From Paracoccus sanguinis (lineage in GTDB: Bacteria; Pseudomonadota; Alphaproteobacteria; Rhodobacterales; Rhodobacteraceae), in NCBI RefSeq assembly GCF_900106665.1, contig NZ_FNNA01000001.1:806001-870000 (forward strand): 64,000 nt of DNA. The letters are read 5' to 3'. The number at the start of each line of letters is the position of its first letter. The stretch's first letter is position 1. The notes under the pieces are model-generated. The model searched no databases. It was not told the DNA's origin and saw nothing but the letters and a program-made list of their open reading frames with translations. The translations under genes and the position numbers were made by a program. Shown piece by piece: positions 1 through 45,036 of this stretch.

Positions 1-264
1 CTGCGGGGCGGGGACGGCGGCGACGGCCGCGGCGCGGGCGGCGGCGTCGCCCTGGGTCGCCTCGGCCGCGAGCAGCGCGTCGCCGAACGCCTGCGCGGTG
101 CGGGCGGCACGGGCCGTGGACCACTCGCGCCAGGCGGCGGCCCCGACCAGCACCAGGATGGCGAGGACGGCGATCCAGCCGTAGCGCCGCATCGCCAGGA
201 ACAGGCGGTCGCGGCGCAGATCCTCGGTCACCTCGTCGATGAAGCTGTCGTTCTGGTTGGCCAT
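1..264 (-). CDS. YfgM/tetratricopeptide-like membrane protein (partial, N-terminal 88 residues)
   Basis: The gene runs off the left edge of the window, so only its N-terminus is present. It starts at the ATG whose complement is at 262-264. The first ~25 residues are charged (MANQNDSFIDEVTEDLRRDR) and cytoplasmic in character. They are followed by a single membrane helix at about residues 28-45 and an Ala-rich region that would enter a tetratricopeptide-like periplasmic domain. This layout matches the alphaproteobacterial YfgM/TPR_21 family, usually found beside the BamB and Der GTPase genes, which would lie outside the window. Family assignment rests on the N-terminus only. Confidence 0.6.
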   Translation of the reverse strand, partial: MANQNDSFIDEVTEDLRRDRLFLAMRRYGWIAVLAILVLVGAAAWREWSTARAARTAQAFGDALLAAEATQGDAAARAAAVAAVPAPQ

Positions 265-432
265 GTCGTCCCGCCGGTCCCTCGTTTCCCGCTCTTCTAT
301 ACGCGCGCGGGGCGGATTGCCAACGGCTGCGCGGGAACCCGCCCCACGCCCGCCGCGTTGCCCACGCAAGCCCGGCGCCACCTTGTGCGCGCCGACGCCG
401 AGACCACCGAAATCCTTGGAAAGGAACGCAAT

Positions 433-1032
433 ATGGCCTTCACCCTGCCCGACCTCCCCTATGCCCACGACGCGCTGGCCGCCGGCGGGATGTCCAAGGA
501 GACGCTCGAGTATCACCACGACAAGCACCACAAGGCCTACGTCGACAAGCTCAACGAGCTGATCGCCGGCACCGAGTGGGAGGGCAAGACGCTCGAAGAG
601 ATCGTCAAGGGCACCTATCAGGAGGGTGCGGTCGCCCAGAACGGCATCTTCAACAACGCCAGCCAGCACTGGAACCACACCCAGTTCTGGGAGATGATGG
701 CGCCGAAGGTTCCGGCGATGCCGTCCGAGCTGGAAGCCGCGATCAAGGACAGCTTCGGCTCGGTCGACGACTTCAAGAAGAAGTTCACCGAGGCCGGCGT
801 CGGCCAGTTCGGCTCGGGCTGGGCGTGGCTGGTCAAGAAGGCCGATGGCGGGCTCGAGATCACCAAGACCGAGAACGGCGTGAACCCGCTCGCCAAGGGC
901 CAGACCGCGCTGCTCGGCTGTGACGTGTGGGAACATTCCTACTACATCGACTTCCGCAACGCGCGGCCGAAGTACCTCGAGAACTTCCTCGCCAATCTGG
1001 TGAACTGGGAAAACGTCGCCTCGCGGATGTGA
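433..1032 (+). CDS. sodB: Superoxide dismutase, Fe/Mn family
   Basis: A 199-residue protein of normal family length that dismutates superoxide in the cytoplasm. Metal-ligand contexts are visible: a His-rich helix near residue 26 (HHDKHHKAYV), a second ligand block around NASQHWNHTQFW, and the C-terminal DVWEHSYYIDF block carrying the Asp and His ligands. The start at 433 is chosen because AAGGAA lies just upstream and the homologous N-terminus (MAFTLPDLPYAHDAL) begins there. The open frame extends upstream to 358 but with no family-like sequence. Iron is the more likely metal from family resemblance, but this is inference. A terminator follows directly. Confidence 0.97.
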   Translation: MAFTLPDLPYAHDALAAGGMSKETLEYHHDKHHKAYVDKLNELIAGTEWEGKTLEEIVKGTYQEGAVAQNGIFNNASQHWNHTQFWEMMAPKVPAMPSELEAAIKDSFGSVDDFKKKFTEAGVGQFGSGWAWLVKKADGGLEITKTENGVNPLAKGQTALLGCDVWEHSYYIDFRNARPKYLENFLANLVNWENVASRM

Positions 1033-1054
1033 TCTGCGGAGTTTGAACGCGAGA

Positions 1055-1083
1055 GGGCCCGCAGCGATGCGGGCCCTTTTCGT
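1055..1083 (+). terminator. Rho-independent terminator of sodB
   Basis: A perfect 8-bp inverted repeat (GGGCCCGC at 1055-1062 and GCGGGCCC at 1069-1076) with a 6-base loop is followed by TTTT. It lies 23 bases after the sodB stop codon. Confidence 0.85.
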
Positions 1084-1102
1084 TGTGGGGGTTGTGACGC
1101 CG

Positions 1103-1130
1103 AACCGGGGTATTTCGCCAGACAGACGCG
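1103..1130 (+). repeat. Intergenic 'GGGGTATTT' element (copy 1)
   Basis: CCGGGGTATTTCGCCAGACA lies in the short gap between the convergent sodB and soxG genes. It resembles two other intergenic sites in this window (about 8412 and 10869), each with a C/G-rich lead, a GG(G)(A/G)TATTT core and an A/G/C-rich tail. Similar short dispersed intergenic sequences are common in Rhodobacteraceae genomes. Function is unknown. Confidence 0.4.
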
Positions 1131-1131
1131 C

Positions 1132-1689
1132 TCAGCGGGGCGCGAGGCCGGTGCCAGGGGCGGCGGCGCGCGCCAGCACCTCGGCGAGGTAGTCGCGGAT
1201 CGACCGGAAGGCGATGACCCGCCAGCCGTCGCCGTGGCGCCACAGCGCGCAGGCGACCTGGGCCGCGCGGGTGCGGCGCACCCCGTCCGCGGGCAGCGCG
1301 GACAAGTCGGCGGGGGTCAGCTTCATCAGCACCTCGGCGGCCCGGGGGCCGGACAGGTCAAAGACGCAGCGCATGGCGCTGACATCCTCGATCAGCGCGG
1401 GCTCGGTCGAGAGCGCGTCGCGCAGCGCGGCGAGGGTCTCGGCCGTCTCGGCGGCGGGCAGGATCAGCAGCAGCTCGTCCGGCGCCATCCAGCCGAGCCA
1501 GCGCGCCCCGTCGGTGGTGAAGCGCGTGGTGGCGGGCACCGCGAGCCCCGCCGCCTCGGCCAGCGCATCGCCCGCCCGGGCCAGGTCGGCGCGGATCAGG
1601 ATCATCCCCAGCCCGCGGATCTCGGTGATCGCCGCCAGCGGCCCCGTGCCCGTCACAACGCTGCTCGTATCTCTGCCCCTCTCAGCCAT
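1132..1689 (-). CDS. soxG: Sarcosine oxidase, gamma subunit
   Basis: This 185-residue protein is the gamma subunit of heterotetrameric sarcosine oxidase, which demethylates sarcosine to glycine and passes the one-carbon unit to tetrahydrofolate with release of hydrogen peroxide. It has the GcvT-like fold region typical of SoxG, with a core containing GWMAPDELLLILP and, near the C-terminus, WRVIAFRSIRDYLAEVL. Its start overlaps the end of soxA by 8 bases, so translation is probably coupled. It is the last gene of the leftward sox operon. Confidence 0.93.
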   Translation of the reverse strand: MAERGRDTSSVVTGTGPLAAITEIRGLGMILIRADLARAGDALAEAAGLAVPATTRFTTDGARWLGWMAPDELLLILPAAETAETLAALRDALSTEPALIEDVSAMRCVFDLSGPRAAEVLMKLTPADLSALPADGVRRTRAAQVACALWRHGDGWRVIAFRSIRDYLAEVLARAAAPGTGLAPR

Positions 1690-4612
1690 TCGCCCGCGTC
1701 CCTTCCTTGTCGTAGAACACCGGATCGACGATCCGCGCCCGATAGGTCGCGCCCGGCACCTCGAAGGCCAGCTCCTCGCCCATCCGCTCGGGCCCGCGCT
1801 GCACCAGCCCCATCGCGATCGGCCGGCCGAGCGTCGGCGAGGCGTAGCTCGAGGTCACCCGGCCTTGCGTGTTGCGCTGGCCGTTGGCGTTCACGCCGTC
1901 GGCCACCGCATAGGCGCCGTCCGGCAGCACCCGCCCGTCGAGGCTTTCTAGCCCGACCAGCTTCCAGCGCTCGGGCGAGGCCATGAACGACCGCTCCTGC
2001 GCGCGCTTGCCGATGAAGTCGGGCTTCTTCTTCGAGATCGCCCAGCCGAGGTTCAGGTCCTGCGGGATCACAGTGCCGTCGGTCTCGTCCCCGATCATGA
2101 TGAAGCCCTTTTCGGCCCGCATGACGTGCATCGCCTCGGTGCCGTAGGGCGTGATGCCGTATGGCGCACCGGCGGCGTGGATCGCCTCCCACAAGGCCAG
2201 GCCGCGGTCGGCGGGGGTGGCGATCTCGAAGGACAGCTCGCCCGAGAAGCTGATGCGGTAGATGCGGACCGGATGCCCGGCCAGCGTGCCCTCGGCCCAG
2301 CCCATGAAGGGCAGCGCCGCCTCGGACACGTCCATGCCGCCCAGCGCCTCAAGCACCGCGCGGGCCTTGGGGCCGACCACGGCGATCTGCGCCGACTGCT
2401 CGGTGAGGTTGGCGGTGTGCACCTGCCAGTCCCACCATTCACACTGCAGCCAGTCCTCCATATGCGCGTGGATGCGTTCGGCCCCGCCGGTGGTGGTGTG
2501 GCAGAGCCAGGCGTCCTCGGAGAGCCGCGCCGCCACCCCGTCGTCGATCAGGAAGCCGTTTTCCGAACAGATCAGCCCGTAGCGGCATTTGCCGACCGGC
2601 AGGGACGACATCATGCCGGTATAGATCATGTCGAGGAAGCGCCCGGCATCCGGCCCCTTGACGAGGATCTTGCCCAGCGTCGAGGCGTCGAGCGTGCCCA
2701 CCCCGCCCCGCACCGCCCCGATCTCGCGCGCGACGGCGGTTTCGCGGGTCTCGCCCGCGCGCGGGTAGCAATAGGGCCGGCGCCAGAGACCGACCGGCTC
2801 GAAATCCGCGCCGTGCGCCTCGTGCCAGCCGTGCATCGGCGTCTTGCGCAGCGGCTGGAAGGCCGCGCCGCGGGCCTCGGCGGCGATGGTGCCGAGGGTG
2901 AGTGGCGTATAGGGCGGGCGGAAGGTCGTCGTGCCGGTCGCCGCGATGGGCTGGCCCAGCGTGTCCGACAGCACGGCGAGGCCGTTGATGTTGCTGACCT
3001 TCCCCTGGTCCGTCGCCATCCCCAGCGTGGTGTAGCGCTTGGCGTGCTCGACGCTCGCATAGCCCTCGCGGCCAGCGAGTTCCACGTCCGAGACCTTCAC
3101 GTCGTTCTGGAAATCGAGCCACATCTTGAAGCGCGCCTTGGGCGGCGCACCCGCGGGCATGACCCAGACCGGCAGGATCGGCGCCTCGTCCGGCGCCCCG
3201 GTCAGCTCGGCCAGCCGCAGGTCGCCCGCCGCCGCGCCCACGGCCAGCACGTCGCCGCGCCCGTCGGCGCCCGTGGGCGGCTGCGCGGGGTCAGGGGCGA
3301 ACATCGCGCGGGCCTCGTCCCAGACCAGCTTGCCGCCACAATGGCTCCACAGATGGACCACCGGCGACCAACCGCCGGACATGGCGATCACGTCGCAATC
3401 GACGGTGCCGAGCGGGTCGCCCGCGCCGTCCTGCGCGCACCAGCGCAGCCCGTCGACACCCATCCGACCGAGCACCTTGGCCACCGCCGCCCCCGTCTCG
3501 ACCCGCACCCCGCGGGCGCGGACGGCCTGCGGCAGCGCGCCCTCGGCCTGCGCCCGCGCGTCGAGCACCACCGGCACCTCGAGCCCGGCGTCCAGCGCCG
3601 CGAGCGCAGTGCGATAGGCGTCGTCGTTGTTGGTGACGACCGCGATCCGCCGCCCCGGCGCCACCGCGTAGTCGGTGATGTAGTCGCGCACCGCGCTGGC
3701 CAGCATCACCCCAGGCACGTCGTTGCCGGCAAAGCTCAGCGGCCGTTCGAGCGCCCCGGTGGCGGTGATGATGCGCCCGGCGCGGATGCGCCACAGCCGC
3801 TGGCGCGGCAGGCCGCTGTCGGGTGCGTGGTCGGCCAGCGCCTCACGGGCGAGCAGATAGCCGTGATCGTAAAGCCCCGTGGCCATGGTGTTGCGCCGCA
3901 GGGTGACGTTCGGCATCGCCCGCAGCGCGGCCAGCGCCGCCTCGACGTGGGCCTGCCCGTCGGGGTGATCGACCGGCGTGCGCCCGCCCCAGTGCGGGGA
4001 CTGTTCCAGCACGAGGACCCGGCCGCCCCCCGCCGCGACGCGCTGCGCGGCAGCCAGCCCGGCGATACCGCCGCCCACCACGACGACCTCGGCATGGGCA
4101 TAGGCCTGTTCGTAGCGGTCGGGGTCGGGATGCTCGGGCGCCCGCCCGAGGCCGGCGGCGCGGCGGATCACCGGCTCGAACAGCCGCTTCCACGCCGCCC
4201 GGGGGTGGATGAAGGTCTTGTAGTAGAACCCGGCCGGGAAGAACCGCCACAGCCGGTCGTTGATCGCGCCGATGTCGCGGTCAAGGCTCGGCCAGGCGTT
4301 CTGGCTGACCGCCACCATCCCCGGCTCGAGCGGGGTGGTGGTGGCGCGCTGGTTCGGCTCGAACCGCGGGCCGGTGCCGAGGCCGAAGAGCGCGTTCGGC
4401 TCTTCCGCGCCCGAGGCGAGCGGGCCGCGCGGGCGGTGATACTTGAAGCTGCGCCCCATGATCAGCTGGCCGCTGCCGAGCAGCGCCGAGGCGAGCGTGT
4501 CGCCGGCAAAGCCCGCGCGGTCGCGGCCCTCGAAGCGGAACGGACGCGGCGCGCTGCGGTCGATCAGGCGGCCGCCCTGCGGCAGGCGGAAGGGGGGATG
4601 GCGGCGGGTCAT
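1682..4612 (-). CDS. soxA: Sarcosine oxidase, alpha subunit
   Basis: A 976-residue subunit of the cytoplasmic heterotetrameric sarcosine oxidase, of full family length. The N-terminal ~100 residues form the small ferredoxin-like domain seen in SoxA (FAGDTLASALL, FKYHRPRGP). A dinucleotide-binding fold begins near residue 173 (VVVVGGGIAGLAAAQ). The C-terminal ~400 residues are an aminomethyltransferase (GcvT)-like domain that handles the folate-bound one-carbon unit (RAEKGFIMIGDETDGT, LGWAISKKKPDFIGKRA). Its ATG overlaps the stop of the TfoX-like gene upstream (ATGA), and its end overlaps soxG. The long open frame on the opposite strand is a shadow of the GC-rich codon bias. Confidence 0.97.
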   Translation of the reverse strand: MTRRHPPFRLPQGGRLIDRSAPRPFRFEGRDRAGFAGDTLASALLGSGQLIMGRSFKYHRPRGPLASGAEEPNALFGLGTGPRFEPNQRATTTPLEPGMVAVSQNAWPSLDRDIGAINDRLWRFFPAGFYYKTFIHPRAAWKRLFEPVIRRAAGLGRAPEHPDPDRYEQAYAHAEVVVVGGGIAGLAAAQRVAAGGGRVLVLEQSPHWGGRTPVDHPDGQAHVEAALAALRAMPNVTLRRNTMATGLYDHGYLLAREALADHAPDSGLPRQRLWRIRAGRIITATGALERPLSFAGNDVPGVMLASAVRDYITDYAVAPGRRIAVVTNNDDAYRTALAALDAGLEVPVVLDARAQAEGALPQAVRARGVRVETGAAVAKVLGRMGVDGLRWCAQDGAGDPLGTVDCDVIAMSGGWSPVVHLWSHCGGKLVWDEARAMFAPDPAQPPTGADGRGDVLAVGAAAGDLRLAELTGAPDEAPILPVWVMPAGAPPKARFKMWLDFQNDVKVSDVELAGREGYASVEHAKRYTTLGMATDQGKVSNINGLAVLSDTLGQPIAATGTTTFRPPYTPLTLGTIAAEARGAAFQPLRKTPMHGWHEAHGADFEPVGLWRRPYCYPRAGETRETAVAREIGAVRGGVGTLDASTLGKILVKGPDAGRFLDMIYTGMMSSLPVGKCRYGLICSENGFLIDDGVAARLSEDAWLCHTTTGGAERIHAHMEDWLQCEWWDWQVHTANLTEQSAQIAVVGPKARAVLEALGGMDVSEAALPFMGWAEGTLAGHPVRIYRISFSGELSFEIATPADRGLALWEAIHAAGAPYGITPYGTEAMHVMRAEKGFIMIGDETDGTVIPQDLNLGWAISKKKPDFIGKRAQERSFMASPERWKLVGLESLDGRVLPDGAYAVADGVNANGQRNTQGRVTSSYASPTLGRPIAMGLVQRGPERMGEELAFEVPGATYRARIVDPVFYDKEGTRANG

Positions 4613-34499: not shown

Positions 34500-34575
34500 G
34501 CCGCAGTAGCTCAGCTGGTAGAGCACGTCATTCGTAATGATGGGGTCGGGGGTTCGAGTCCCTTCTGCGGCACCA
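34500..34575 (+). tRNA. tRNA-Thr (CGT anticodon)
   Basis: A 76-base cloverleaf with encoded CCA. The acceptor stem pairs GCCGCAG (34500-34506) with CTGCGGC (34565-34571). The D-arm (AGCTCAGCTGGTAGAGC) and the T-arm with GGTTCGAGTCC are standard. The anticodon loop TTCGTAA gives CGT at 34533-34535, reading ACG (threonine). The GC content of the DNA falls sharply immediately after its 3' end, which fits use of this gene as an island integration site. Confidence 0.96.
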
Positions 34576-34739
34576 AAATATTCTCATTTTATACACTTGA
34601 TCCGATGCTTTCTTGGATCGATCCGGTTTGTTACCTTATCAAACCTATCGTTTGCTGTCGTTTGCAGAACCTTGAGCGGTGTGGGCTTGGCACGATCAGT
34701 GCGCTCTACGTTAACCGGTTGCTCGGACGAACAGGAATC

Positions 34740-34990
34740 GAAGCGCTACAGCTTCCATGGCGAGGCCAATAACCTTGATCTGATGCGCCGTCTCCGTACG
34801 ATCGCCGGCGTCGGGACGATCACGACAATGGCTGTAAAGGCATTCGCGCCGGCCTAGACGCGTTCCCTCACGGAGGCACTTATCTGCTTGGCTGGGCCTC
34901 GCTTCGCGGCAGCATCTATCCGGCAGCGAACAGCCCCTCGGCGAACGTCGAAGGTAGCCCAGCGCTGCACCCAATGAAAATTCTCTGCGC
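34740..34990 (+). pseudogene. Decayed C-terminal fragment of an IS110/IS1111-type transposase
   Basis: Frame 1 reads MRRLRTIAGVGTITTMAVKAF (34782-34847), then stops at 34857. Frame 2 from 34883 reads SAWLGLASRQHLSGSEQPLG, and another frame near 34942 reads RTSKVAQR. In order, these match the IS110/IS1111 transposase C-terminus: an IPGVGPITA-like helix-hairpin-helix, then an AAWLGLxPRQxSSGGKxxLG block, then GRxSKxGxR. Several frameshifts and no intact ends: a dead remnant. Confidence 0.65.
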
Positions 34991-35311
34991 CGGGCGAACG
35001 CGCAACTGTCGCAGATAGGCATAGATCAGCTACCGGCCCCGGTCGCGGCTAGATCAACGACTAGTGTCACGTCAGTCACACTCAGGACAAAGTAGAAGAG
35101 CGTGAGGCCGCGCCCGCGGCTGAACTTCTGGTAAACTCTCAGTATAGGATCGGAGCGGTGGACGTGCTAAAGACGCTCTCCTATCAGCAGGTAAGGAATC
35201 AAGCGCAACCCCCTAGCAGTATGTCCTAGCAATCTGTGTCATAGTCTCGCACCCTCCCCTTCATCAAGTCCGAGAAGAAGCTGTCCGATAACGGGCCCGA
35301 TTCTCACGTTC

Positions 35312-35497
35312 CCAAAGGTTGCCATTTTGTTGAAGGTCACACAAAATACCGCCTACTCGACGGCTCACACCGGTCGGATCCCAGCGTTCAAGATTCGGGG
35401 TCAAGCGCGTTTCAAGAGCGATGCTATTGATCGATTGATCGACCAACAGAAGGCAGGGGTCGAGTGGAATGCCTTAGAGGACTTCTGCGATGTCTGA
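35312..35497 (+). pseudogene. Excisionase-type helix-turn-helix protein, partial or with unusual start
   Basis: The frame reads a short HTH domain, PKVAILLKVTQNTAY followed by HTGRIPAFKIRGQARF and DAIDRLIDQQKAG, and ends FCDV at a TGA at 35495-35497. This is the MerR/excisionase-like 'helix_turn_helix' pattern with its wing. No ATG or GTG exists in frame back to the stop at about 35189; TTG at 35327 has AAAGG 8 bases upstream but would remove most of helix 1. The stop overlaps the res start by 8 bases, so it was probably the first gene of the restriction operon. Confidence 0.6.
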
Positions 35498-38400
35498 GCA
35501 GTTCTTCGAAAAGCCGATCCTAAATTCCCCCTACGAATATCCGGGCCGCCATTGGGAACTGGATGCAGACGGCCAGCCAACGAATCGCATTATCGATACC
35601 AGGCGCCATTCCGACCTGATCACACCGGTCCCCAAGACGAAGAAGCAGCGGAAAAGCCAGAAGCAGGGCGCTCTTCTTCTGGGTGCTGATGACGATCTTT
35701 CGACGGCTGAGCTGGAATACAACCCTACCCCGATCATCAACGAGGTTCGGGGACATGTCGAAACGTGGCGCAATCTTCCCAACCCAGACCAGTGGCTCGT
35801 GACCCCGGAAACAGCCCGACTGTTGCAACATTGGCGACACCACAAATTCGAGGGGGTCCAGCCCTTCTTTTGCCAGATCGAAGCCGTCGAAACCTCGATC
35901 TGGTTGACCGAGGTCGCGCCGAAAATGGGGCCGCGCGTGGCCAAGTTCTGGGCGCACATCAAGGGGGCCAACGAGCAGGCCAATCCCGAACTGATGCGCC
36001 TTGCGTTGAAGCTTGCGACCGGGGCTGGCAAGACCACCGTCATGGCGATGCTGATCGCGTGGCAGACGGTTAACGCCGTGCGTCACCCAAACAGCAAGCA
36101 GTTCTCTAGCCGGTTCTTGATCGTTTCCCCTGGCATTACCATCCGCGACCGCTTGCGTGTCCTGTTGCCGAACGATCCCGAAAGCTACTACCGCTCGCGC
36201 GAAATCACGCCGCCCGACATGCTACGAGATATCCAGGCTGCGAAGATCGTCATTACCAACTATCACGCCTTCAAACTGCGTGAGAAACTGGTGATCGCAA
36301 AGGGAACCCGACAGGCTTTATAGGGCTGGCGGGGTGACAAGGTCCCGACGCTGGAGACCGAAGGAGAGATGATCCAGAGGGTTATGGGCGACCTGATGGG
36401 CCAGAAAAACATCGTCGTCCTGAACGACGAGGCGCATCATTGTTATCGCGAGCGGGTGAAGGACGCCGTTGGCGAGACAGAGGAAGATCTGAAGGGCGAC
36501 GAGAAAAGCGAGGCCAAGGAGAACAACGAGGCCGCCCGCATGTGGATTTCTGGTCTCGAAGCGGTCAAGCGGAAGCTCGGCATCAGCATCGTCTATGACC
36601 TGTCGGCAACGCCATTCTTCCTTCGCGGCTCAGGATACATCGAGGGCACCCTGTTTCCTTGGACGATGTCCGACTTCTCCCTGATGGACGCCATCGAATG
36701 CGGCATTGTGAAACTGCCGCGGGTGCCTATCGCCGACAATGTGCCAGGCGGCGATACGCCTAAGTTCCGCAACCTCTGGAATCATATCGGCAAGAAGCTC
36801 CCCAAGAAGGGACGTGCGGCAGGCAAGGCGCTCGATCCGTTCAGCCTACCGGTCGAACTGTTGACCGCCTTGGAAGCCTTGTACGGTCACTACGAAAAGA
36901 CATTCGAGCTCTGGCAAGACAAGAGGATCGGCGTTCCGCCGGTTTTTATAGTCGTCTGCAACAACACGGCGACGTCGGAACTGATCTACAAGTACATCTC
37001 AGGTTTTGACCGGGTCAGTGACGATGGCACCGAGACTACGCTTGAAAATGGGCGCCTTGCGCTTTTCCGGAACTATGATGACTTCGGCAACCGCATGCCG
37101 CGGCCGAACACTATCCTGATCGACAGCGCGCAGCTGGAAGCGGGCGAGGCACTCGACAAGGATTTCCGCGAGATGGCGGCTGTCGAGATCGAGCAATTCA
37201 AACGCGAGATGGTCGAGCGAACGGGCGACATAACGGCAGGCCAGAAGATCGACGAACCAACCCTCCTGCGCGAGGTCATGAACACCGTCGGCAAGAAGGG
37301 CCGCCTCGGTGAACAGATCCGCTGCGTGGTCTCGGTCTCCATGCTGACCGAAGGGTGGGACGCGAATACCGTCACCCACGTTCTTGGCGTCCGCGCCTTC
37401 GGCACGCAACTGCTGTGCGAACAGGTGATCGGAAGGGCTCTTCGGCGCCAGTCATACGAACTGAACGACGAGGGGCTCTTCAACGTCGAATACGCCGATG
37501 TTTTAGGCATCCCCTTCGACTTCACGGCGAAACCGGTGATCTCCCCCCCGGCGGCGCCGCGCGAAACAGTCCGCGTCCACGCTGTAAAACCAGAGCGCGA
37601 CGCACTGGAAATCACCTTCCCTCGCGTCGAGGGCTACCGTGTCGAACTGCCGGATGAACGGCTCGAGGCCAACTTCGGTCCCGACCACGTTCTGGAACTG
37701 ACCCCGCAGCTGCTTGGCCCTTCGACCACCACCAACCAAGGAATCATTGGTGAAGGTGTGGACCTTACGCTTGAGCATCTGGACGACATGCGCTCGTCCA
37801 CCATCCTGTTTCACCTGGCGCGGCACCTTCTCTACACCAAAGACCGCGACCCCGGAGAGGTACCGAAGCTGCACCTCTTTGGCCAGTTGAAGCGCATCAC
37901 CCGCCAGTGGCTCGACGGCGGCTACCTGAAATGCTCGGGGGGCACCTATCCCGCGCAGCTGATCTACAAGGAAATTGCCGATATGGCGGCCGAGCGGATC
38001 AAGGCGGCCATCACCGAAACGCTGAAGGGAGAGAACCAGATCAAGGCTATCCTCGACGCCTACAATCCCACCGGCACGACCGCCTTCGTCAACTTCACCA
38101 CGTCCAAGGCACTTCGCTGGCGGACCCGCCTGGACAAGTCCCATGTCAATTGGGTCGTTTGCGACAGCGAGTGGGAAGCGGAATTTGCTCGGGTGGCGGA
38201 AGGTCATCCCCGAGTACTGTCCTACGTCAAGAACCAGGGGCTCGGCCTCGAGGTGCCCTACCTCTCCGGCTCTACCCCGCGCAAATACCTGCCCGACTTC
38301 ATCGTCAAGGTCGATGACGGCCGCCGCACCGAGGACGGCAAGCCTGACCCGCTGAACATCATCGTCGAAATCAAGGGCTACCGCGGCGAGGATGCCAAAG

Positions 38401-38555
38401 ACAAGGCGAACACCATGCGCGCCTACTGGGTGCCGGGCGTGAACAACCTCGGTAAGTTCGGGCGCTGGGAGTTTGCCGAGTTCACCGCCGTTTATGATGT
38501 GGAAGCGGGATTCGCAAAGCTGATTGAAAATCTAGTGAGCTCGGAGACCCGGTGA
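35490..38555 (+). pseudogene. res: Type III restriction enzyme, Res subunit, interrupted by an amber codon
   Basis: One continuous frame of 1,022 codons, broken only by TAG at 36321-36323. The first part (277 residues) holds Walker A, ATGAGKTT at residues 176-183. The second part holds the DEAH-like box (NDEAHHCY, residue ~313), LSATPFF, the helicase C-terminal block ending VIGRALRRQSYELN, and a C-terminal PD-(D/E)XK nuclease with PDFIVK (Asp936) and VEIKGYRG (Glu960, Lys962). ATP-driven translocation and cleavage would need both parts in one chain. An ATG at 36369 could start the second part alone, lacking Walker A. The stop differs from CAG (Gln) by one base. Read-through or sequencing error remain possible. 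Confidence 0.9.
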
Positions 38556-38556
38556 G

Positions 38557-39465
38557 ATGACTAGGATCCCCATCAAGCCAACGAACGAAAACTTTGACAA
38601 GTATGCCGAACCAGTATTGGCCAGATGGCTCATCGAGGCGGCAATGAACAGAACGGATATTACGTACGGAGAGGCAATGCTTCGCCTCGAACAACAGGTA
38701 GGATTCTCGAGCATCGGTCGTGCAACCCGCTTAGGGTACTGCGCGGGTCAGATAATTCATAACATCCAAGCCAACTTTCCTGATCCGCCACTCTTGAATG
38801 CGCTGCTGGTACTGCAAGAAGATCATATGCCAAGCACCGGTGCGGGCAGTTTCCTGGCCGCCCACTTCAACCAACCAAGGCTTGCATCACAGGGCTTTCG
38901 AGATAGCAAGCCCGCAATCTGGCGTGAATACTTCGAGAGTGCAGCAGAGGAAGTCTACGCCTTCCCAGATTGGCCGAGAGTCTATCGAAAGGTCTATGGT
39001 ACGCCGTATAAGCCTGACACCAGCAAAATGTCACCATCGAGTCCGACCGGTGGCGCTGAAAAGGATGGCATTGCCAGGGGGCGAGGCGGAGAAGGCCCTA
39101 ATCACAAGGCGCTTCGCCTGTGGGTGAAGGCAAATCCAGCCGCAGTTTTCCCAAGGCTGCAAGTCACTCGCACGGATACGGAGATTGATTTGCTCTCCGG
39201 GGACCGTGTTGACGTCGTCTACTACGCACCAGAACGCACGATCGCCTTGGAAGTGAAGTCGAAGGACTCGAACGAGGCAGACCTGACCCGTGGCATCTAC
39301 CAGTGCGTCAAGTATCGAGCGGTAATGCAGGCTATGGATCCGCGCGATGACGCTGACATCTGGGCCGTATTGGTCACGGAGCAAAAGTTGCCCGGCTATT
39401 TGAAGGAACTGGCAAAACGGCTTGAGGTCCCGCACAAGCTGGTCTCGCCCAAGAAAGCTACCTGA
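38557..39465 (+). CDS. PD-(D/E)XK nuclease-like protein of the restriction cluster
   Basis: 302 residues, no named family recognised. The C-terminal third reads as a restriction-endonuclease-like fold: GDRVDVVYYAPERTIALEVK gives Asp219 and Glu232-x-Lys234, followed by a helix with RGIYQCVKYRAV and the strand WAVLVTEQKLP. The N-terminal half (residues 1-150) is helical and unknown. A Ser/Pro/Gly-rich linker lies around residues 155-180. It begins one base after the res stop and ends 3 bases before mod. Its lower GC content compared with res and mod suggests separate acquisition. It may be an accessory nuclease or an inactive nucleic-acid-binding partner. Confidence 0.7.
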   Translation: MTRIPIKPTNENFDKYAEPVLARWLIEAAMNRTDITYGEAMLRLEQQVGFSSIGRATRLGYCAGQIIHNIQANFPDPPLLNALLVLQEDHMPSTGAGSFLAAHFNQPRLASQGFRDSKPAIWREYFESAAEEVYAFPDWPRVYRKVYGTPYKPDTSKMSPSSPTGGAEKDGIARGRGGEGPNHKALRLWVKANPAAVFPRLQVTRTDTEIDLLSGDRVDVVYYAPERTIALEVKSKDSNEADLTRGIYQCVKYRAVMQAMDPRDDADIWAVLVTEQKLPGYLKELAKRLEVPHKLVSPKKAT

Positions 39466-39468
39466 CCC

Positions 39469-42381
39469 ATGGCCAAGAAACCCATCGAGGTCGAGACCCT
39501 CACCCACGTCGCCACGCGCAAGAACATCCCGACGGCCGAGTTCGAAAGCCTGATGCGGGATCAGGACAAGACACCGATCCAGCTTGCGTACGAACGTCGC
39601 AACCGTGACCTTGACCCGCAGCTCGTCTGGCGCGGCAAGGATGAGCAGGACTGGTCCGACCTGATCGTCCAGGCCCCGCCGCTGTACATTCAGGAAAAGG
39701 TCCATCCCAAGGTCATCATCGACGACCTGAAGCGCGAAAGCGCCGACCGCGCGAAAGCGGCCAAGGGCGCCCCGCAGGTCGACATGTTCGCCGATTTCAA
39801 CGGCCTGCCCGATGCCGAGGCCGCGACCGAGTTCTACCAGCACGACCAGCACTGGTCGAACCGGATGATCAGCGGCGACAGCCTGTCGGTGATGGCATCC
39901 TTGGCCGAGCGCGAGGGGCTGCGCGGTCAGGTGCAGTGCATCTATTTCGACCCGCCCTATGGCATCAAGTTCAACTCCAACTTCCAGTGGTCCACCACCA
40001 GCCGCGACGTCAAGGATGGCGACAAGACCCATGTGACGCGCGAACCCGAGCAGGTCCGCGCCTTTCGCGACACCTGGAAGGACGGAATCCACTCCTACCT
40101 GACCTACCTGCGCGACCGGCTGACCGTGGCGCGCGATCTGTTGGCCGAGAGCGGCAGCATCTTCGTGCAGATCGGCGACGAGAACGTTCACCGCGTGCGG
40201 GGGCTGATGGATGAGGTGTTTGGGGACGAGAATTTCTGCGGCCAGATCATGGTGCAGAAGACTTCCGGCGCCGGGAGCCCCGCTATCGGCACAGACGTTC
40301 TTGCAGCCGTCACAGACTACGTCGTCTGGTTCGCCAAGAAGAAAGAAGTTGTGAAGTATCGCCAACTCTACCGGGAGAAACTACTCGGGGAGGAAGGAAC
40401 CACGCAGTATGTAAACTGCCGCATCCGTGATGCCATGAAAGATGTTCGCCTTTCCCAGGTCGAAGGAATTCCCGACAATAACGATGTCTTTGCTTCTGAC
40501 AACTTGACCAGCCCTACTGGGGCCGTAACAACTACCTTCCGCACGTTTGTTGAGGGAAACGGGTTTCAGCCAAAGAAAGGCGGTTGGAAGACGAATGCGG
40601 CAGGGATGAAGAATCTGACCCTCGCATCTCGCCTTAAGCCCATCGGAAATACGCTTATGTATCGTCGATACCTCAATGACTTTGGGGTATCGCCAATCAA
40701 TAACCTCTGGCGAGACGTCCTCTTCACTGGCTTTGCAGAGGACAAAATCTACGTTGTGCAATCCGCTCAGCGACTTGTCCAACGCTGCATCCTGATGACC
40801 ACCGACCCCGGCGATCTGGTGCTCGATCCCACCTGTGGCTCGGGCACCACGGCCTATGTCGCCGAACAATGGGGGCGGCGCTGGATCACCATCGACACCA
40901 GCCGTGTCGCCATCGCCCTCGCCCGGTCCCGCCTGATGGGCGCGCGCTATCCCTATTACCTGCTGGCCGACAGCCCCGAAGGCCAGCAGAAAGAGGCCGA
41001 GGTCACGCGCTCCGTCCCCCGATCTACCCCCACCCACGGCAGCATCCGCCAAGGCTTCGTCTATGACCGCGTGCCGCACATCACGCTGAAATCCATCGCC
41101 AACAACGCCGAAATCGACGTGATCTGGGACAGGCTCCAACCTGCCGTCGAAGACGCCATCACCGCCCTCAACACCGCGCTGCGCGGCCACCGCCCCCCCT
41201 TCAAGGTGGAAACCGGGGGGCGCGCGGGCGCGAAGATCGACTTCACCGCGGGGGGTGAGGTCAAGCTCCCCTCCGGCGAAATGGCCCCGGCAAACGGCCT
41301 GATGGAATGGGAAATCCCGCGCGAGGCCCCCGCCGACTGGCCCACCCCCGCCAAGGCGGCGCTGGCCACGTTCTGGGAGGCCCGCATCGCCCGGCAAAAG
41401 GAGATCGACGCCTCCATCGCCGCCAAGGCCGATTTCGAATACCTCTACGACAAGCCCTTCGCCGACAAGGACAAGTTCCGTGTCGCCGGGCCCTTCACGG
41501 TCGAGAGCCTCTCGCCACACCGAACACTTGCCGTGGACTGGGACGACGAGCTGATCGACCTGCACGATGCCGCCGAGGGCAAGCGCAGGGCCGCCGAGGC
41601 CCCGCGCGACGTCACCGACTTCGCCCACATGATCCTGGAAAACCTCAAAGCCGCAGGCGTGCAGCAGGCGCACAAGGAGGACCGGATCACCTTCACCAGC
41701 CTCAAGGGCTGGCCCGGCAAGTGGGTGGCGGCCGAGGGCGCCTTCATGGAAGGCGACACCCAGCGTCGCGCGGGCGTGTTCATCGGGCCCGAGTTCGGCA
41801 CCGTCTCTCGTCCCGATCTGGTCGCCGCAGCCCGCGAGGCAGGCGACGCCGGTTTCGACGTTCTGATCTGCTGCGCCTTCAACTATGACGCCCACAGTTC
41901 CGAATTCGACAAGCTCGGCCGCATCCGCGTGCTGAAGGCTCGGATGAACCCGGACCTCCATATGGGCGGCGACCTGAAATCCACCGGCGCAGGCAACCTG
42001 TTCGTGATCTTCGGCGAGCCTGACATACGCATCACGGATGACGGGGAGGGCATGGTGCGGGTTCAGGTCTTCGGCGTGGACGTGTTCAAGCCGCAGACTG
42101 GTGAGGTGCAAAGCGAAGGCACCGACGGAATCGCGCTGTGGATGCTGGACACCGACTATAACGAGGAGTCGTTCTTCGTCCGCCACGCCTATTTCCTCGG
42201 CGCTAACGACCCCTACAAGGCGCTGAAGACCACGCTGAAGGCAGAGATCGACGAGGAGGCGTGGGAGAGCCTGTATTCGGACACCTCGCGCCCCTTCCCA
42301 AAGCCGAAGTCGGGGCGGATCGCGGTGAAGGTGATCAATCACCTCGGAGATGAGGTGATGAAGGTGTTTGCGGTAGAGTGA
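39469..42381 (+). CDS. mod: Type III restriction-modification DNA methyltransferase, Mod subunit
   Basis: 970 residues. Motif IV (DPPYG, residues 161-165) precedes motif I (DPTCGSGTT, from residue 453), the beta-class order of amino-methyltransferases, most likely N6-adenine. The ~290 residues between them hold the target-recognition domain. DNA from about 40240 to 40795 (residues ~258-442) is clearly less GC-rich than either flank. The C-terminal 500 residues are long and carry no motif I recognise, apart from strong conservation-like blocks (FEYLYDKPF, YLYSDTSRPFP-like end). Mod methylates the target and is needed by Res for recognition. The gene is intact. Confidence 0.93.
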   Translation: MAKKPIEVETLTHVATRKNIPTAEFESLMRDQDKTPIQLAYERRNRDLDPQLVWRGKDEQDWSDLIVQAPPLYIQEKVHPKVIIDDLKRESADRAKAAKGAPQVDMFADFNGLPDAEAATEFYQHDQHWSNRMISGDSLSVMASLAEREGLRGQVQCIYFDPPYGIKFNSNFQWSTTSRDVKDGDKTHVTREPEQVRAFRDTWKDGIHSYLTYLRDRLTVARDLLAESGSIFVQIGDENVHRVRGLMDEVFGDENFCGQIMVQKTSGAGSPAIGTDVLAAVTDYVVWFAKKKEVVKYRQLYREKLLGEEGTTQYVNCRIRDAMKDVRLSQVEGIPDNNDVFASDNLTSPTGAVTTTFRTFVEGNGFQPKKGGWKTNAAGMKNLTLASRLKPIGNTLMYRRYLNDFGVSPINNLWRDVLFTGFAEDKIYVVQSAQRLVQRCILMTTDPGDLVLDPTCGSGTTAYVAEQWGRRWITIDTSRVAIALARSRLMGARYPYYLLADSPEGQQKEAEVTRSVPRSTPTHGSIRQGFVYDRVPHITLKSIANNAEIDVIWDRLQPAVEDAITALNTALRGHRPPFKVETGGRAGAKIDFTAGGEVKLPSGEMAPANGLMEWEIPREAPADWPTPAKAALATFWEARIARQKEIDASIAAKADFEYLYDKPFADKDKFRVAGPFTVESLSPHRTLAVDWDDELIDLHDAAEGKRRAAEAPRDVTDFAHMILENLKAAGVQQAHKEDRITFTSLKGWPGKWVAAEGAFMEGDTQRRAGVFIGPEFGTVSRPDLVAAAREAGDAGFDVLICCAFNYDAHSSEFDKLGRIRVLKARMNPDLHMGGDLKSTGAGNLFVIFGEPDIRITDDGEGMVRVQVFGVDVFKPQTGEVQSEGTDGIALWMLDTDYNEESFFVRHAYFLGANDPYKALKTTLKAEIDEEAWESLYSDTSRPFPKPKSGRIAVKVINHLGDEVMKVFAVE

Positions 42382-42947
42382 TGATCAAGAACTATGGGTT
42401 ATTCTGGAAGCGCGAGGCGGTTCACTGGAATCCTGGCGGTCGGCGAGGAAGCCCACGAGGACACCTAATCGGCAGCCACTTAGTCGAAAGGCGACAGCAA
42501 CAGGTCAACTTTCGTGATCAAGTCGGTATCTACTGCCTGTATGACGATAACTTCAGGCTGCTTTATACCGGACAAGCTGGGTTCGGAAACGCAACTCTAT
42601 TCGGAAGGCTTCGAAGCCACACGAACGACCCTCTCTCTGAGAGGTGGACCAAGTTCTCATGGTTTGGTCTAAAAGGACTTCTGCACGAGGGCGACAGGTA
42701 TGTCTTGCAGAATCAAGTCGACGCCAATGGACTTGAACTTAATGAAGTACTCAACTCACTAGAAGGAATAATAATAGTTAGTGCGGAGCCGCCACTCAAT
42801 CGGAGAGGTCCAAACTTTGGGGCGGCGCAGAAATTCTCACAGTATCGAGACCTCAAGAATGTCTATCCCTCTCAGATTGATATGATCAAGGACATATGGG
42901 ACAGTGTGCCCGCGGAGGAGGACGACGCTGAGGCAGGAGATCAGTGA
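42381..42947 (+). CDS. GIY-YIG nuclease family protein
   Basis: 188 residues. The signature pair is GIY at residues 49-51 and YTG at 62-64, followed at the usual spacing by an Arg/His helix (FGRLRSHTND), as in GIY-YIG endonuclease domains. A later EGIIIVSAEPPLNRRG segment fits the conserved Glu and the 'PP-LN' region seen in many GIY-YIG proteins. Its ATG overlaps the mod stop (TGATG), and its stop overlaps the helicase start in the same way. GC content is about half, much lower than mod. It is likely a DNA endonuclease working with the cluster; the target is unknown. Confidence 0.82.
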   Translation: MIKNYGLFWKREAVHWNPGGRRGSPRGHLIGSHLVERRQQQVNFRDQVGIYCLYDDNFRLLYTGQAGFGNATLFGRLRSHTNDPLSERWTKFSWFGLKGLLHEGDRYVLQNQVDANGLELNEVLNSLEGIIIVSAEPPLNRRGPNFGAAQKFSQYRDLKNVYPSQIDMIKDIWDSVPAEEDDAEAGDQ

Positions 42948-45036
42948 TGGAGTTCCGGATCGCCGACACCTTCACCGACAGTCTCGGTCGCCTGACGGCG
43001 CAAGAGCAAAAGGCGGCTAAAACCGCTGCTTTCGACTTGCAACTGGACCCGACCTCGAATGGACTGTCCTTCCATAAACTGGACCGCGCAAAGGATCCGA
43101 ACTTCTGGTCGGTTCGGGCAAACGCCGACATCCGTATCATCGTCCATCGCACGGCAGCAAGCATCCTACTGGTCTACGTCGACCACCACGACAACGCTTA
43201 CAAATGGGCCGAACGCCGCAAGATCGAACGACATCCGACGACCGGCGCCATGCAGTTGGTGGAGGTACGCGAGCGGGTTGAAGAGGTAGAAATATTCAAG
43301 CCCAAAGAGGTGGCCGCTACACCAGCGCCACTCACAAAGCCCGCGGCCCTCCTGTTCGACAATCTGCGCAAGTTCGAACTGATGGCCTTCGGTGTGCCCG
43401 AGGAATGGGTAAGCGACGTTCGGGCCGCCACCGAGGACACGCTGTTCGACCTGATCGAGCACTTGCCGCAAGAGGCGCAGGAGGCGCTCCTGAAACTGGC
43501 AGTTGGCGAGGAGCCGGAACCGCCCGAACTTGCGCCGGTCGAAGCCGATCCCTTTGCCCACCCCGACGCGCAGCGCCGCTTCCGCGTTTTGACCAATGCA
43601 GAAGAACTGAAGCAGGCGCTCGACTATCCTTGGGACAAGTGGGCGGTGTTCTTACACCCGGCCCAAGCCGACCTTGTCGAGCGATCCTTTTCGGGCCCAA
43701 CGCGGGTTTCGGGATCGGCCGGTACGGGCAAAACCATCGTTGCCCTTCATCGTGCGGTTCATCTTGCCCGTGCCCATCCTTCCGCAAGAGTCCTGTAACA
43801 ACGTTTTCAAAGCCGCTTGCGAACGCCCTGCGGCGCAAAATGGACAGCCTGGTGGGCAATGAGCCAGCTGTTGCAGCGCGAATCGTGGTGAAGCCGGTTT
43901 CGGCAGTCGGTTACGACATCCACACCAAACTTTTCGGGCAGCCTCAGATCGCTCCGTCCGCCTTGATCAGATCTCTTATCGTCAAGGCTGCGGCCGAAGT
44001 CGACGGGCACAGCTTCTCGACCCAATTCCTGATCGGAGAGTGGAATGATGTTGTCGACGCCTGGCAGCTTCGATCATGGACGGACTACCGCGATGTTTCG
44101 CGGCTTGGCAGGAAGACCCGGATCGGCGGCAAGCAGCGTGAAACCCTCTGGGCCATCTTCGATCGGGTCCGTGCGAGGCTGCGAGACCGTAGCTTGATGA
44201 CATGGTCGGATGTGTTCGGCCGCGTGACAGACGCTCTCAGCCAAGGCGATTCGCGCCCCTACGACTTCGCTGTAATCGACGAGGCGCAAGACTTGGGTGT
44301 GACAGAGGCTAGGTTCTTCGCCGCCCTCGCAGCCGCACGCAGCGACGGCCTTTTCTTCGCAGGCGATCTCGGCCAGCGCATATTTCAGCAACCCTTTTCG
44401 TGGAAAGCACTTGGCCTCGATGTTCGCGGACGATCCTTTACGCTGCGAATCAACTATCGCACCTCTCACCAGATCCGAACACATGCCGATCGGCTCCTGC
44501 CGTCAACGGTCTCGGATGTTGACGGAAACACAGAGGGGAGGCGTGGTACGGTATCAATGTTCGATGGGCCTCCACCATCAGTCATGGCTTGTAGCGATGA
44601 GGATCACGAATGCGGCACAGTTGCGGAATGGATCACGGCCCGACTGGCGGAAGGGTGCGCGCCGCATGAGATTGGTGTCTTTGTCAGGTCCGACGCGGAA
44701 TTGAAACGTGCGCGTGCTGCCGCGAAAGCGGCGGGTGTTCGCTCGGTTGAACTTAGCGAAAAGATCGAAGTGGGGGACGGGGCGATCGCCCTGAGTACGA
44801 TGCACTTCGCCAAGGGATTGGAATTCCGGTCGGTGGTGGTGATGGCATGCGACGACGAGGTGATCCCACAAGCGGAGCGGATTGAGTCGGTCGCCGACCA
44901 CGCGGACCTGGAAGAGGTCTACAACACGGAACGTCATCTCCTTTACGTTGCATGTACTAGAGCGAGGGATGAGCTGCTAGTCACCGGTGTCACTCCACTA
45001 TCCGAGTTTGTCGATGACTTCCTCAAGACAAGCTAG
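42947..45036 (+). pseudogene. Superfamily-I (UvrD/Rep-type) helicase with RelE/ParE-like N-terminus, frameshifted
   Basis: The first frame (283 residues, stop at 43796-43798) contains a RelE/ParE-like fold (FHKLDRAKDPNFWSVRA, then DIRIIVHRTAASILLVYVDHHD, then YKWAERRK) and, after a linker, the helicase Walker A GSAGTGKT at residues 256-263. The remainder continues in another frame from about 43797 (TTFSKPLANALRRK, then FAVIDEAQDLG, ALSTMHFAKGLEF, LLYVACTRARDELLV), which are motifs Ia, II, V and VI. The total length of 2,090 bases is one short of 697 codons, so a single-base deletion near 43796 explains the break. As written, neither half is a working helicase. Confidence 0.88.

What the first reader, a model, noticed from the sequence alone, without database searches (positions are those of the whole stretch)
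35312..45036. Six-gene type III restriction cluster carrying extra nucleases and a helicase
An HTH protein, Res, a PD-(D/E)XK-like protein, Mod, a GIY-YIG protein and a RelE/ParE-fused SF1 helicase lie on one strand with gaps of 3 bases or less or with overlaps. Classical type III systems need only mod and res. Co-translation of two more nuclease folds and a helicase suggests a composite defence system rather than chance neighbours. I do not recognise this exact set as a named system.
Basis: partly seen in the sequence, partly recalled or inferred. Interest (0 to 1): 0.75.

Follow-up and report, generated by a model that had tools for sequence, protein, structure and literature searches.

The report
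Restriction operon with exchangeable defence slots
This looks like a recently broken copy of a widespread bacterial anti-virus operon in which two restriction genes and a toxin-like helicase form a constant core and two slots between them hold interchangeable defence genes, here two extra nucleases.

Summary
Related loci show a constant core, res - mod - RelE/UvrD helicase, with two variable slots: res|mod and mod|helicase. Of the 80 best helicase loci in about 85,000 genomes, Mod lies upstream in 72; the other eight contigs end within 1.8 kb. In 289 alphaproteobacteria helicase and Mod co-occur (12 genomes, p=5.5e-14), whereas the PD-(D/E)XK and GIY-YIG genes do not track Mod (p=0.28 each). 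Those two are cargo: nearest relatives share only one of them. Elsewhere the same slots hold GmrSD, IetA-IetS, SIR2-HerA, Dsr1, Fic or HNH genes. At 90% or more helicase identity, cargo families match in only 4 of 13 pairs per slot. The window copy looks inactivated: res has an in-frame stop, the helicase a frameshift, the HTH frame no recognisable start; mod and both nucleases are open. The helicase resembles ArmD of ARMADA type II, essential for phage defence there (PMC12458937). Mod also occurs without the helicase (6 of 18 class genomes). New variant of a known kind; mechanism inferred.

The parts
35312..35495 (+). HTH (excisionase/MerR-like) frame just upstream of res, overlapping its start; no recognisable start codon, decayed
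   Evidence: relatives in 10 other loci
35490..38555 (+). res: type III-like restriction subunit (BPTD_3080 family), one gene with an in-frame TAG at 36321-36323
   Evidence: NCBIfam NF046055 matched by both pieces; PF04851; stop position
38557..39465 (+). slot 1 cargo: PD-(D/E)XK nuclease-like protein, 302 aa, intact
   Evidence: no library match; invariant D..ExK..Q-K-Y pattern in 5 relatives; C-terminal part of model resembles PD-(D/E)XK nucleases; same slot in L086 at 78%
39469..42381 (+). mod: type III-like DNA methyltransferase, 970 aa, intact
   Evidence: PF01555; PADLOC PDLC03632 MTase_III, 1258 bits; EcoP15I Mod in PDB
42378..42947 (+). slot 2 cargo: GIY-YIG nuclease-like protein, 189 aa, intact, overlaps mod stop and helicase start
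   Evidence: motif residues invariant in 7 relatives; weak PF20815 match of the 95% identical L043 copy, E 0.02, below cut-off
42944..45036 (+). RelE-fused UvrD helicase, core gene, interrupted by a frameshift near 43795
   Evidence: intact relative P0010 of 697 aa; RelE-like domain by model and Foldseek
34500..34575 (+). tRNA-Thr(cgt) at the left edge of the low-GC stretch; no second copy of its 3' end in the window

Best explanation
The locus is a recently inactivated copy of a widespread defence operon. Its constant core is a type III-like restriction-modification pair (Res, Mod) plus a RelE-fused UvrD helicase. Its two internal slots, res|mod and mod|helicase, hold other defence genes that are exchanged at gene boundaries. 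Likely working (inferred unless marked): Mod methylates host sites; Res with Mod recognises unmethylated sites on incoming DNA, moves along it and cuts, as type III enzymes do; the helicase enters at the cut or stalled complex and unwinds or helps to degrade the DNA, and its RelE domain may cleave mRNA if infection goes on. In ARMADA type II a protein of the same make-up, ArmD, is essential for defence (published). The co-directional cargo genes, many of which abut or overlap the core genes (observed), would act as a second line against phages that evade restriction. In this genome res and the helicase are interrupted while mod and both cargo nucleases remain open (observed), so it would now methylate but not restrict.
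For: Mod upstream of the helicase in 72 of 80 helicase loci, the other 8 lacking upstream contig. Helicase and Mod co-occur: 12 of 16 and 18 in 289 genomes, p=5.5e-14; 17 of 24 and 24 in 398 genomes, p=3.4e-19, 16 of the 17 on one contig within 2.8 kb. Helicase beside Mod in 20 of 21 IMG/VR loci. Slots: 97 non-redundant loci, slot 1 occupied in 46 of 73, slot 2 in 73 of 95; 33 of 34 recurrent cargo families keep to one slot; junctions at gene boundaries in 13 loci inspected; cargo shared by only 4 of 13 pairs per slot at 90% helicase identity or more. Whole named systems as cargo: IetA+IetS, SIR2+HerA, Dsr1, GmrSD. dN/dS 0.02-0.08 for res, helicase, GIY-YIG. ArmD precedent.
Against: No function was measured. 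Mod occurs without a detected helicase in 6 of 18 class genomes and 7 of 24 phylum genomes; some are distant Mods or contig ends, but L044, L050 and L073 have several kb downstream without it. Two plasmid records (Methylibium) with 58% identical partial Mod lack it. A 50% identical helicase sits without Mod in Qipengyuania, and 30-36% relatives lie in other systems. The 80 loci are the best-scoring ones, so biased to close relatives. PD and GIY-YIG co-occur in 2 genomes (own and G288, p=0.0024), so a preference for each other is not excluded. The lesions could be sequencing errors.
Confidence: 0.7

Rival explanations
1. The lesions are sequencing or assembly errors and the window holds a working operon.
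For: Low dN/dS of res, helicase and GIY-YIG; only one assembly is held; a frameshift is a common assembly error.
Against: Three separate lesions (stop, frameshift, lost start) in one operon while mod, PD and GIY-YIG are open; HTH dN/dS is raised; res is broken at other sites in 3 other loci.
Confidence: 0.25
2. The cargo genes are addiction or selfish genes that hitchhike in the operon and add nothing to its defence.
For: Some cargo looks like toxin-antitoxin parts: PIN, HepT-like, Fic, Peptidase_M78.
Against: Other cargo matches whole anti-phage systems (IetA-IetS, SIR2-HerA, Dsr1, GmrSD), and families keep to one slot.
Confidence: 0.2
3. An ordinary type III RM pair in a defence island with chance neighbours.
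For: Many accessory genes differ from locus to locus.
Against: Constant helicase partner; fixed slot positions; 144 of 151 slot ORFs of 150 aa or more co-directional.
Confidence: 0.05
4. A fixed six-gene composite system.
For: Tight spacing; G288 has PD, GIY-YIG, helicase and res/mod fragments, though on separate contigs.
Against: PD and GIY-YIG each occur with Mod only in the own genome among 289; L086 shares only PD, L043/L064/L084 only GIY-YIG.
Confidence: 0.03

Closest known systems
Type III restriction-modification (EcoP15I type; PADLOC MTase_III, NCBIfam BPTD_3080)
   Same: Mod with N6/N4-methylase domain, related to EcoP15I Mod; Res with ResIII helicase domain
   Different: res before mod, long Mod, constant RelE/UvrD helicase, two cargo slots; PADLOC Res models match only at 18 bits
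ARMADA type II (PMC12458937: abstract and passages seen)
   Same: Ends in a RelE-fused UvrD (GajB-like) helicase, ArmD, essential there
   Different: No BrxHII-like, PglX-like or YprA-like partner found in the window cluster; Res and Mod instead
BREX loci with embedded auxiliary nucleases (PMC12839542: passages and part 1 of section 35 seen)
   Same: Core methylation-based system with PD-(D/E)XK, HNH/GmrSD, PIN, HEPN, Schlafen effectors inside the locus
   Different: Different core; the two-slot, gene-precise exchange pattern is not what was described in the part read
PrrC in the EcoPrrI type IC locus (passages in review PMC12707154)
   Same: Extra nuclease gene embedded in an RM locus, active when restriction is inhibited
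   Different: One gene in a type I locus
Gabija GajB (PADLOC)
   Same: Helicase part matches GajB models, best E 6e-21
   Different: RelE-like N-terminus; no GajA match in the cluster

Membership tests
Type III RM | Mod with DNA N6/N4-methylase domain, related to EcoP Mod | tested here: met
Type III RM | Res with SF2 helicase and C-terminal endonuclease domain | tested here: inconclusive
   ResIII met, BPTD_3080 full length; RE_endonuc E 0.008, below cut-off; reading frame interrupted
Type III RM | Adjacent mod and res in one operon | tested here: met
Type III RM | Asymmetric site, ATP-dependent cutting between two inversely oriented sites | not testable with these tools
   needs methylome and enzyme assay
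ARMADA type II | RelE-fused UvrD helicase (ArmD) | tested here: met
   same architecture; not compared directly with the E. coli ArmD sequence
ARMADA type II | ArmA (BrxHII-like), ArmB (PglX-like), ArmC (YprA-like) | tested here: not met
   no such match for the cluster's other genes
BREX | PglZ and BREX core genes | tested here: not met
   no such match in the first rows shown for the cluster; flanks of the window only partly scanned
Gabija | GajA (OLD ATPase-TOPRIM) beside GajB | tested here: not met
   no GajA match in the cluster

The most novel reading that the evidence does not exclude
Res, Mod and the RelE/UvrD helicase are an unnamed three-part defence chassis, spread over many phyla, whose two slots capture whole other defence systems by gene-precise exchange; the core both restricts DNA and carries the cargo as a second line that acts when restriction is blocked, with the RelE/UvrD protein linking the two.
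Probability: 0.25. Interest if true: 0.8.

Novelty: new variant of a known kind. Interest (0 to 1): 0.6.

Why it matters
It defines a testable unit: one conserved restriction-helicase core with two positions that act like natural insertion sites for anti-phage genes. Slot genes without any family match are candidates for new defence genes, so the slots offer a way to find them. It also lets the role of RelE/UvrD (ArmD-like) proteins be tested in a simpler system than ARMADA, and asks whether restriction operons carry their own back-up.

Tried and rejected
Six-gene composite: rejected because PD and GIY-YIG do not track Mod and swap independently.

HTH as a core part: rejected, 11 of 69 loci, window included; other HTH families upstream were not sought.

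Programmed read-through of the res stop: rejected; two close relatives inspected have no stop there, and the other interrupted res genes are broken elsewhere.

Island bounded by a tRNA repeat: no second copy of the tRNA 3' end in the window; left open.

RelE domain by sequence against PDB: weak (RelE3, E 0.28), and lost when three distant rows were removed; the structure model carries the claim.

PD protein in IMG/VR: none. Helicase in the phage collection at E 1e-40: none. Res C-terminal piece in PDB: none. The PD model is poor overall (mean pLDDT 61; usable about 180-295), and no Foldseek hit reached 0.001.

Papers: nine searches showed no title or listed abstract describing a Res/Mod/RelE-UvrD operon. 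PMC11980606 on RelE/ParE toxins (outline and passages seen) has no 'UvrD' or 'helicase' in its main text. The library lacks most subscription journals.

Mended here: the Methylibium plasmid records, Mod without helicase, the PD-GIY co-occurrence and the GC range were added or corrected; odds of the best explanation are set at 0.7.
Full report
What is there. The window is G000:C11:806001-870000 of a 3.59 Mb genome. I take its class to be Alphaproteobacteria: G260, listed as same class, has a contig of the length of the Tistrella mobilis record with the same Mod position (inference). After a tRNA-Thr GC falls, and on the + strand lie an HTH frame, res, a PD-(D/E)XK-like gene, mod, a GIY-YIG-like gene and a RelE/UvrD helicase, tightly packed.

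Lesions. res is one gene with an in-frame TAG at 36321-36323. The helicase loses its frame near 43795. The HTH frame lacks a recognisable start and has a raised dN/dS. Among loci where the gene could be read, window included, res is uninterrupted in 74 of 78, the helicase in 113 of 114, mod in 88 of 91; near-identical contigs are counted. Three other res genes are interrupted, two by stops at other residues and one by a frame change. dN/dS against near relatives is 0.02-0.06 for res, 0.05-0.07 for the helicase, 0.075 for GIY-YIG and about 0.25 for mod; for PD it could not be computed. So the lesions look recent, or are sequencing errors; one assembly cannot decide.

Identification. Res belongs to NCBIfam BPTD_3080. 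Mod has a Pfam N6_N4_Mtase domain, matches PADLOC PDLC03632 at 1258 bits and is related to EcoP15I Mod. PD has no match in Pfam, PADLOC or NCBIfam at E 0.01; a D..ExK..Q-K-Y pattern is invariant in five relatives, and the confident C-terminal part of a model resembles EndoMS, Can2/Card1 and a Pyrococcus repair endonuclease at E 1.6e-3 and above. GIY-YIG motif residues are invariant in seven relatives (motif meaning recalled). The helicase has UvrD domains behind a RelE-like domain: AlphaFold model mean pLDDT 91, Foldseek hits YoeB, RelE and ParE toxins, best E 7.8e-5.

Core. Mod lies upstream in 71 and in L130, where the last 41 residues of Mod are seen about 9.9 kb upstream: 72 of 80. The other eight have at most 1.8 kb of contig upstream. 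Titles of Mod-positive records include Pseudomonadota, Desulfuromonas, Clostridiales, Planctomycetota, Acidobacteria, Nitrospirales, Methylomirabilis, Pseudanabaena, Chryseolinea, Acidimicrobiales and Akkermansiaceae; many are MAGs, so single assignments are uncertain. IMG/VR: helicase beside Mod in 20 of 21 Mod loci. In 289 genomes of the class: helicase in 16, Mod in 18, both in 12, p=5.5e-14 (without the own genome 6.7e-13). PD in 5 and GIY-YIG in 5, each with Mod only in the own genome (p=0.28), each with the helicase in 2 (p=0.026; without the own genome 0.19); PD with GIY-YIG in 2, own and G288 (p=0.0024). In 398 genomes of the phylum: helicase in 24, Mod in 24, both in 17, p=3.4e-19; of 18 genomes with a helicase at 50% identity or more, 17 have Mod, 16 on the same contig within 2.8 kb, and in the one without Mod the helicase starts at a contig edge. 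The two samples share some genomes. Plasmids: of 12 records with Mod at 53% identity or more, 10 have the helicase; the two without are Methylibium records with a partial Mod match.

Against a strict core. Mod without a detected helicase: 6 of 18 class genomes and 7 of 24 phylum genomes, some of them distant Mods or broken contigs, but L044, L050 and L073 have kilobases downstream without it. In L046 and L052 the order is mod-res with the helicase on the other strand. Helicase without Mod: Qipengyuania at 50%, and relatives at 30-36% in Thermus and cyanobacterial plasmids.

Slots. In 111 loci with Mod, window included, slot 1 was measurable in 83 and slot 2 in 101, 8 to 3,663 and -1 to 7,915 bases long (L130 not among them). 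198 slot ORFs fell into 115 families. The ORF caller was laxer for the + strand; among ORFs of 150 aa or more 144 are co-directional and 7 are not. After removing loci with helicases 97% or more identical, 97 remain: slot 1 empty (under 150 bases) in 26 and occupied (250 or more) in 46 of 73, slot 2 empty in 20 and occupied in 73 of 95. 24 families occur in slot 1, 83 in slot 2, one in both. Of 34 families seen in two or more loci 33 keep to one slot; of 74 loci with slot 2 cargo the last cargo stop is within -20 to +40 bases of the helicase start in 58 (overlap in 29), and the first cargo start is as near to the mod stop in 50 of 74 (overlap in 23). In 13 close loci inspected by eye, shared core sequence ends at the mod start, mod stop and helicase start. 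At 90% or more helicase identity 4 of 13 pairs share a slot 1 family and 4 of 13 a slot 2 family.

Cargo. Representatives match GmrSD, Bro-N, NYN, ASCH (slot 1), AAA plus subtilase, SIR2 plus HerA-like, HNH, SNF2 helicase (slot 2), and GmrSD with both domains, Fic and Schlafen AlbA_2 (slot 1); many others had no Pfam match. PADLOC names whole systems in slot 2: IetA and IetS (L115), SIR2 and HerA (L104), Dsr1 (L105). 108 of 115 family representatives, those on the + strand, were put through tally scans.

The window's combination. PD recurs in the same slot of L086 (78%), whose slot 2 holds another small ORF; GIY-YIG recurs in L043 (95%), L064 and L084, whose slot 1 holds another family. I saw no other contiguous locus with both. 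G288 has both, with helicase and res/mod fragments on separate contigs and a stop inside its GIY-YIG.

Mechanism. Shown: composition, order, co-direction, exchange, purifying selection. Inferred: Mod methylates, Res-Mod restricts, helicase processes or blocks DNA with RelE as a possible RNase arm, cargo as second line. Precedents: all four ARMADA type II genes, ArmD included, are needed, and a Walker A change in ArmD abolishes protection while a Walker B change only reduces it (PMC12458937, passages); auxiliary nucleases inside BREX loci (PMC12839542); PrrC in a type I locus (PMC12707154).

Novelty. In PADLOC 2.0.0 the helicase matches only GajB-like and other UvrD models, and Res only at 18 bits. 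Nine searches of an open-licence library showed no description. I call it a new variant of a known kind: a type III-like restriction core with an ArmD-like helicase and two cargo slots.

Noticed in passing
window 34576-35311: No convincing gene between the tRNA-Thr and the HTH frame; by eye parts look like insertion-sequence remnants. One ORF there had no Pfam match.
   Followed up: no
L039:2682-10255: A GIY-YIG relative (43%) ends another operon: NERD-SF1 helicase, DEAD helicase, MZB-domain protein, GIY-YIG; possible separate defence operon.
   Followed up: partly
L190:1-11995 (Thermus thermophilus plasmid): RelE/UvrD relative (36%) after a 1838-aa DEAD helicase and an N-6 methylase, beside type III-A CRISPR genes; looks ARMADA-like.
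   Followed up: partly
L191:4792-17757 (Qipengyuania citrea plasmid): RelE/UvrD helicase (50%) between a TM0106 RecB-like nuclease with an unknown gene and a 1900-aa DUF4011 protein, without Mod.
   Followed up: no
L106, L108, L117, L142, L157: Mod matches break before the last ~107 residues, with a gap of roughly 370-540 bases; possible domain insertion.
   Followed up: no
L184 (G288:C45): Remnant with the Res N-terminus close to the Mod N-terminus, as after a deletion.
   Followed up: no
L130:1-10000: The largest slot 2 seen, about 9.9 kb between Mod end and helicase; its genes were not annotated.
   Followed up: no
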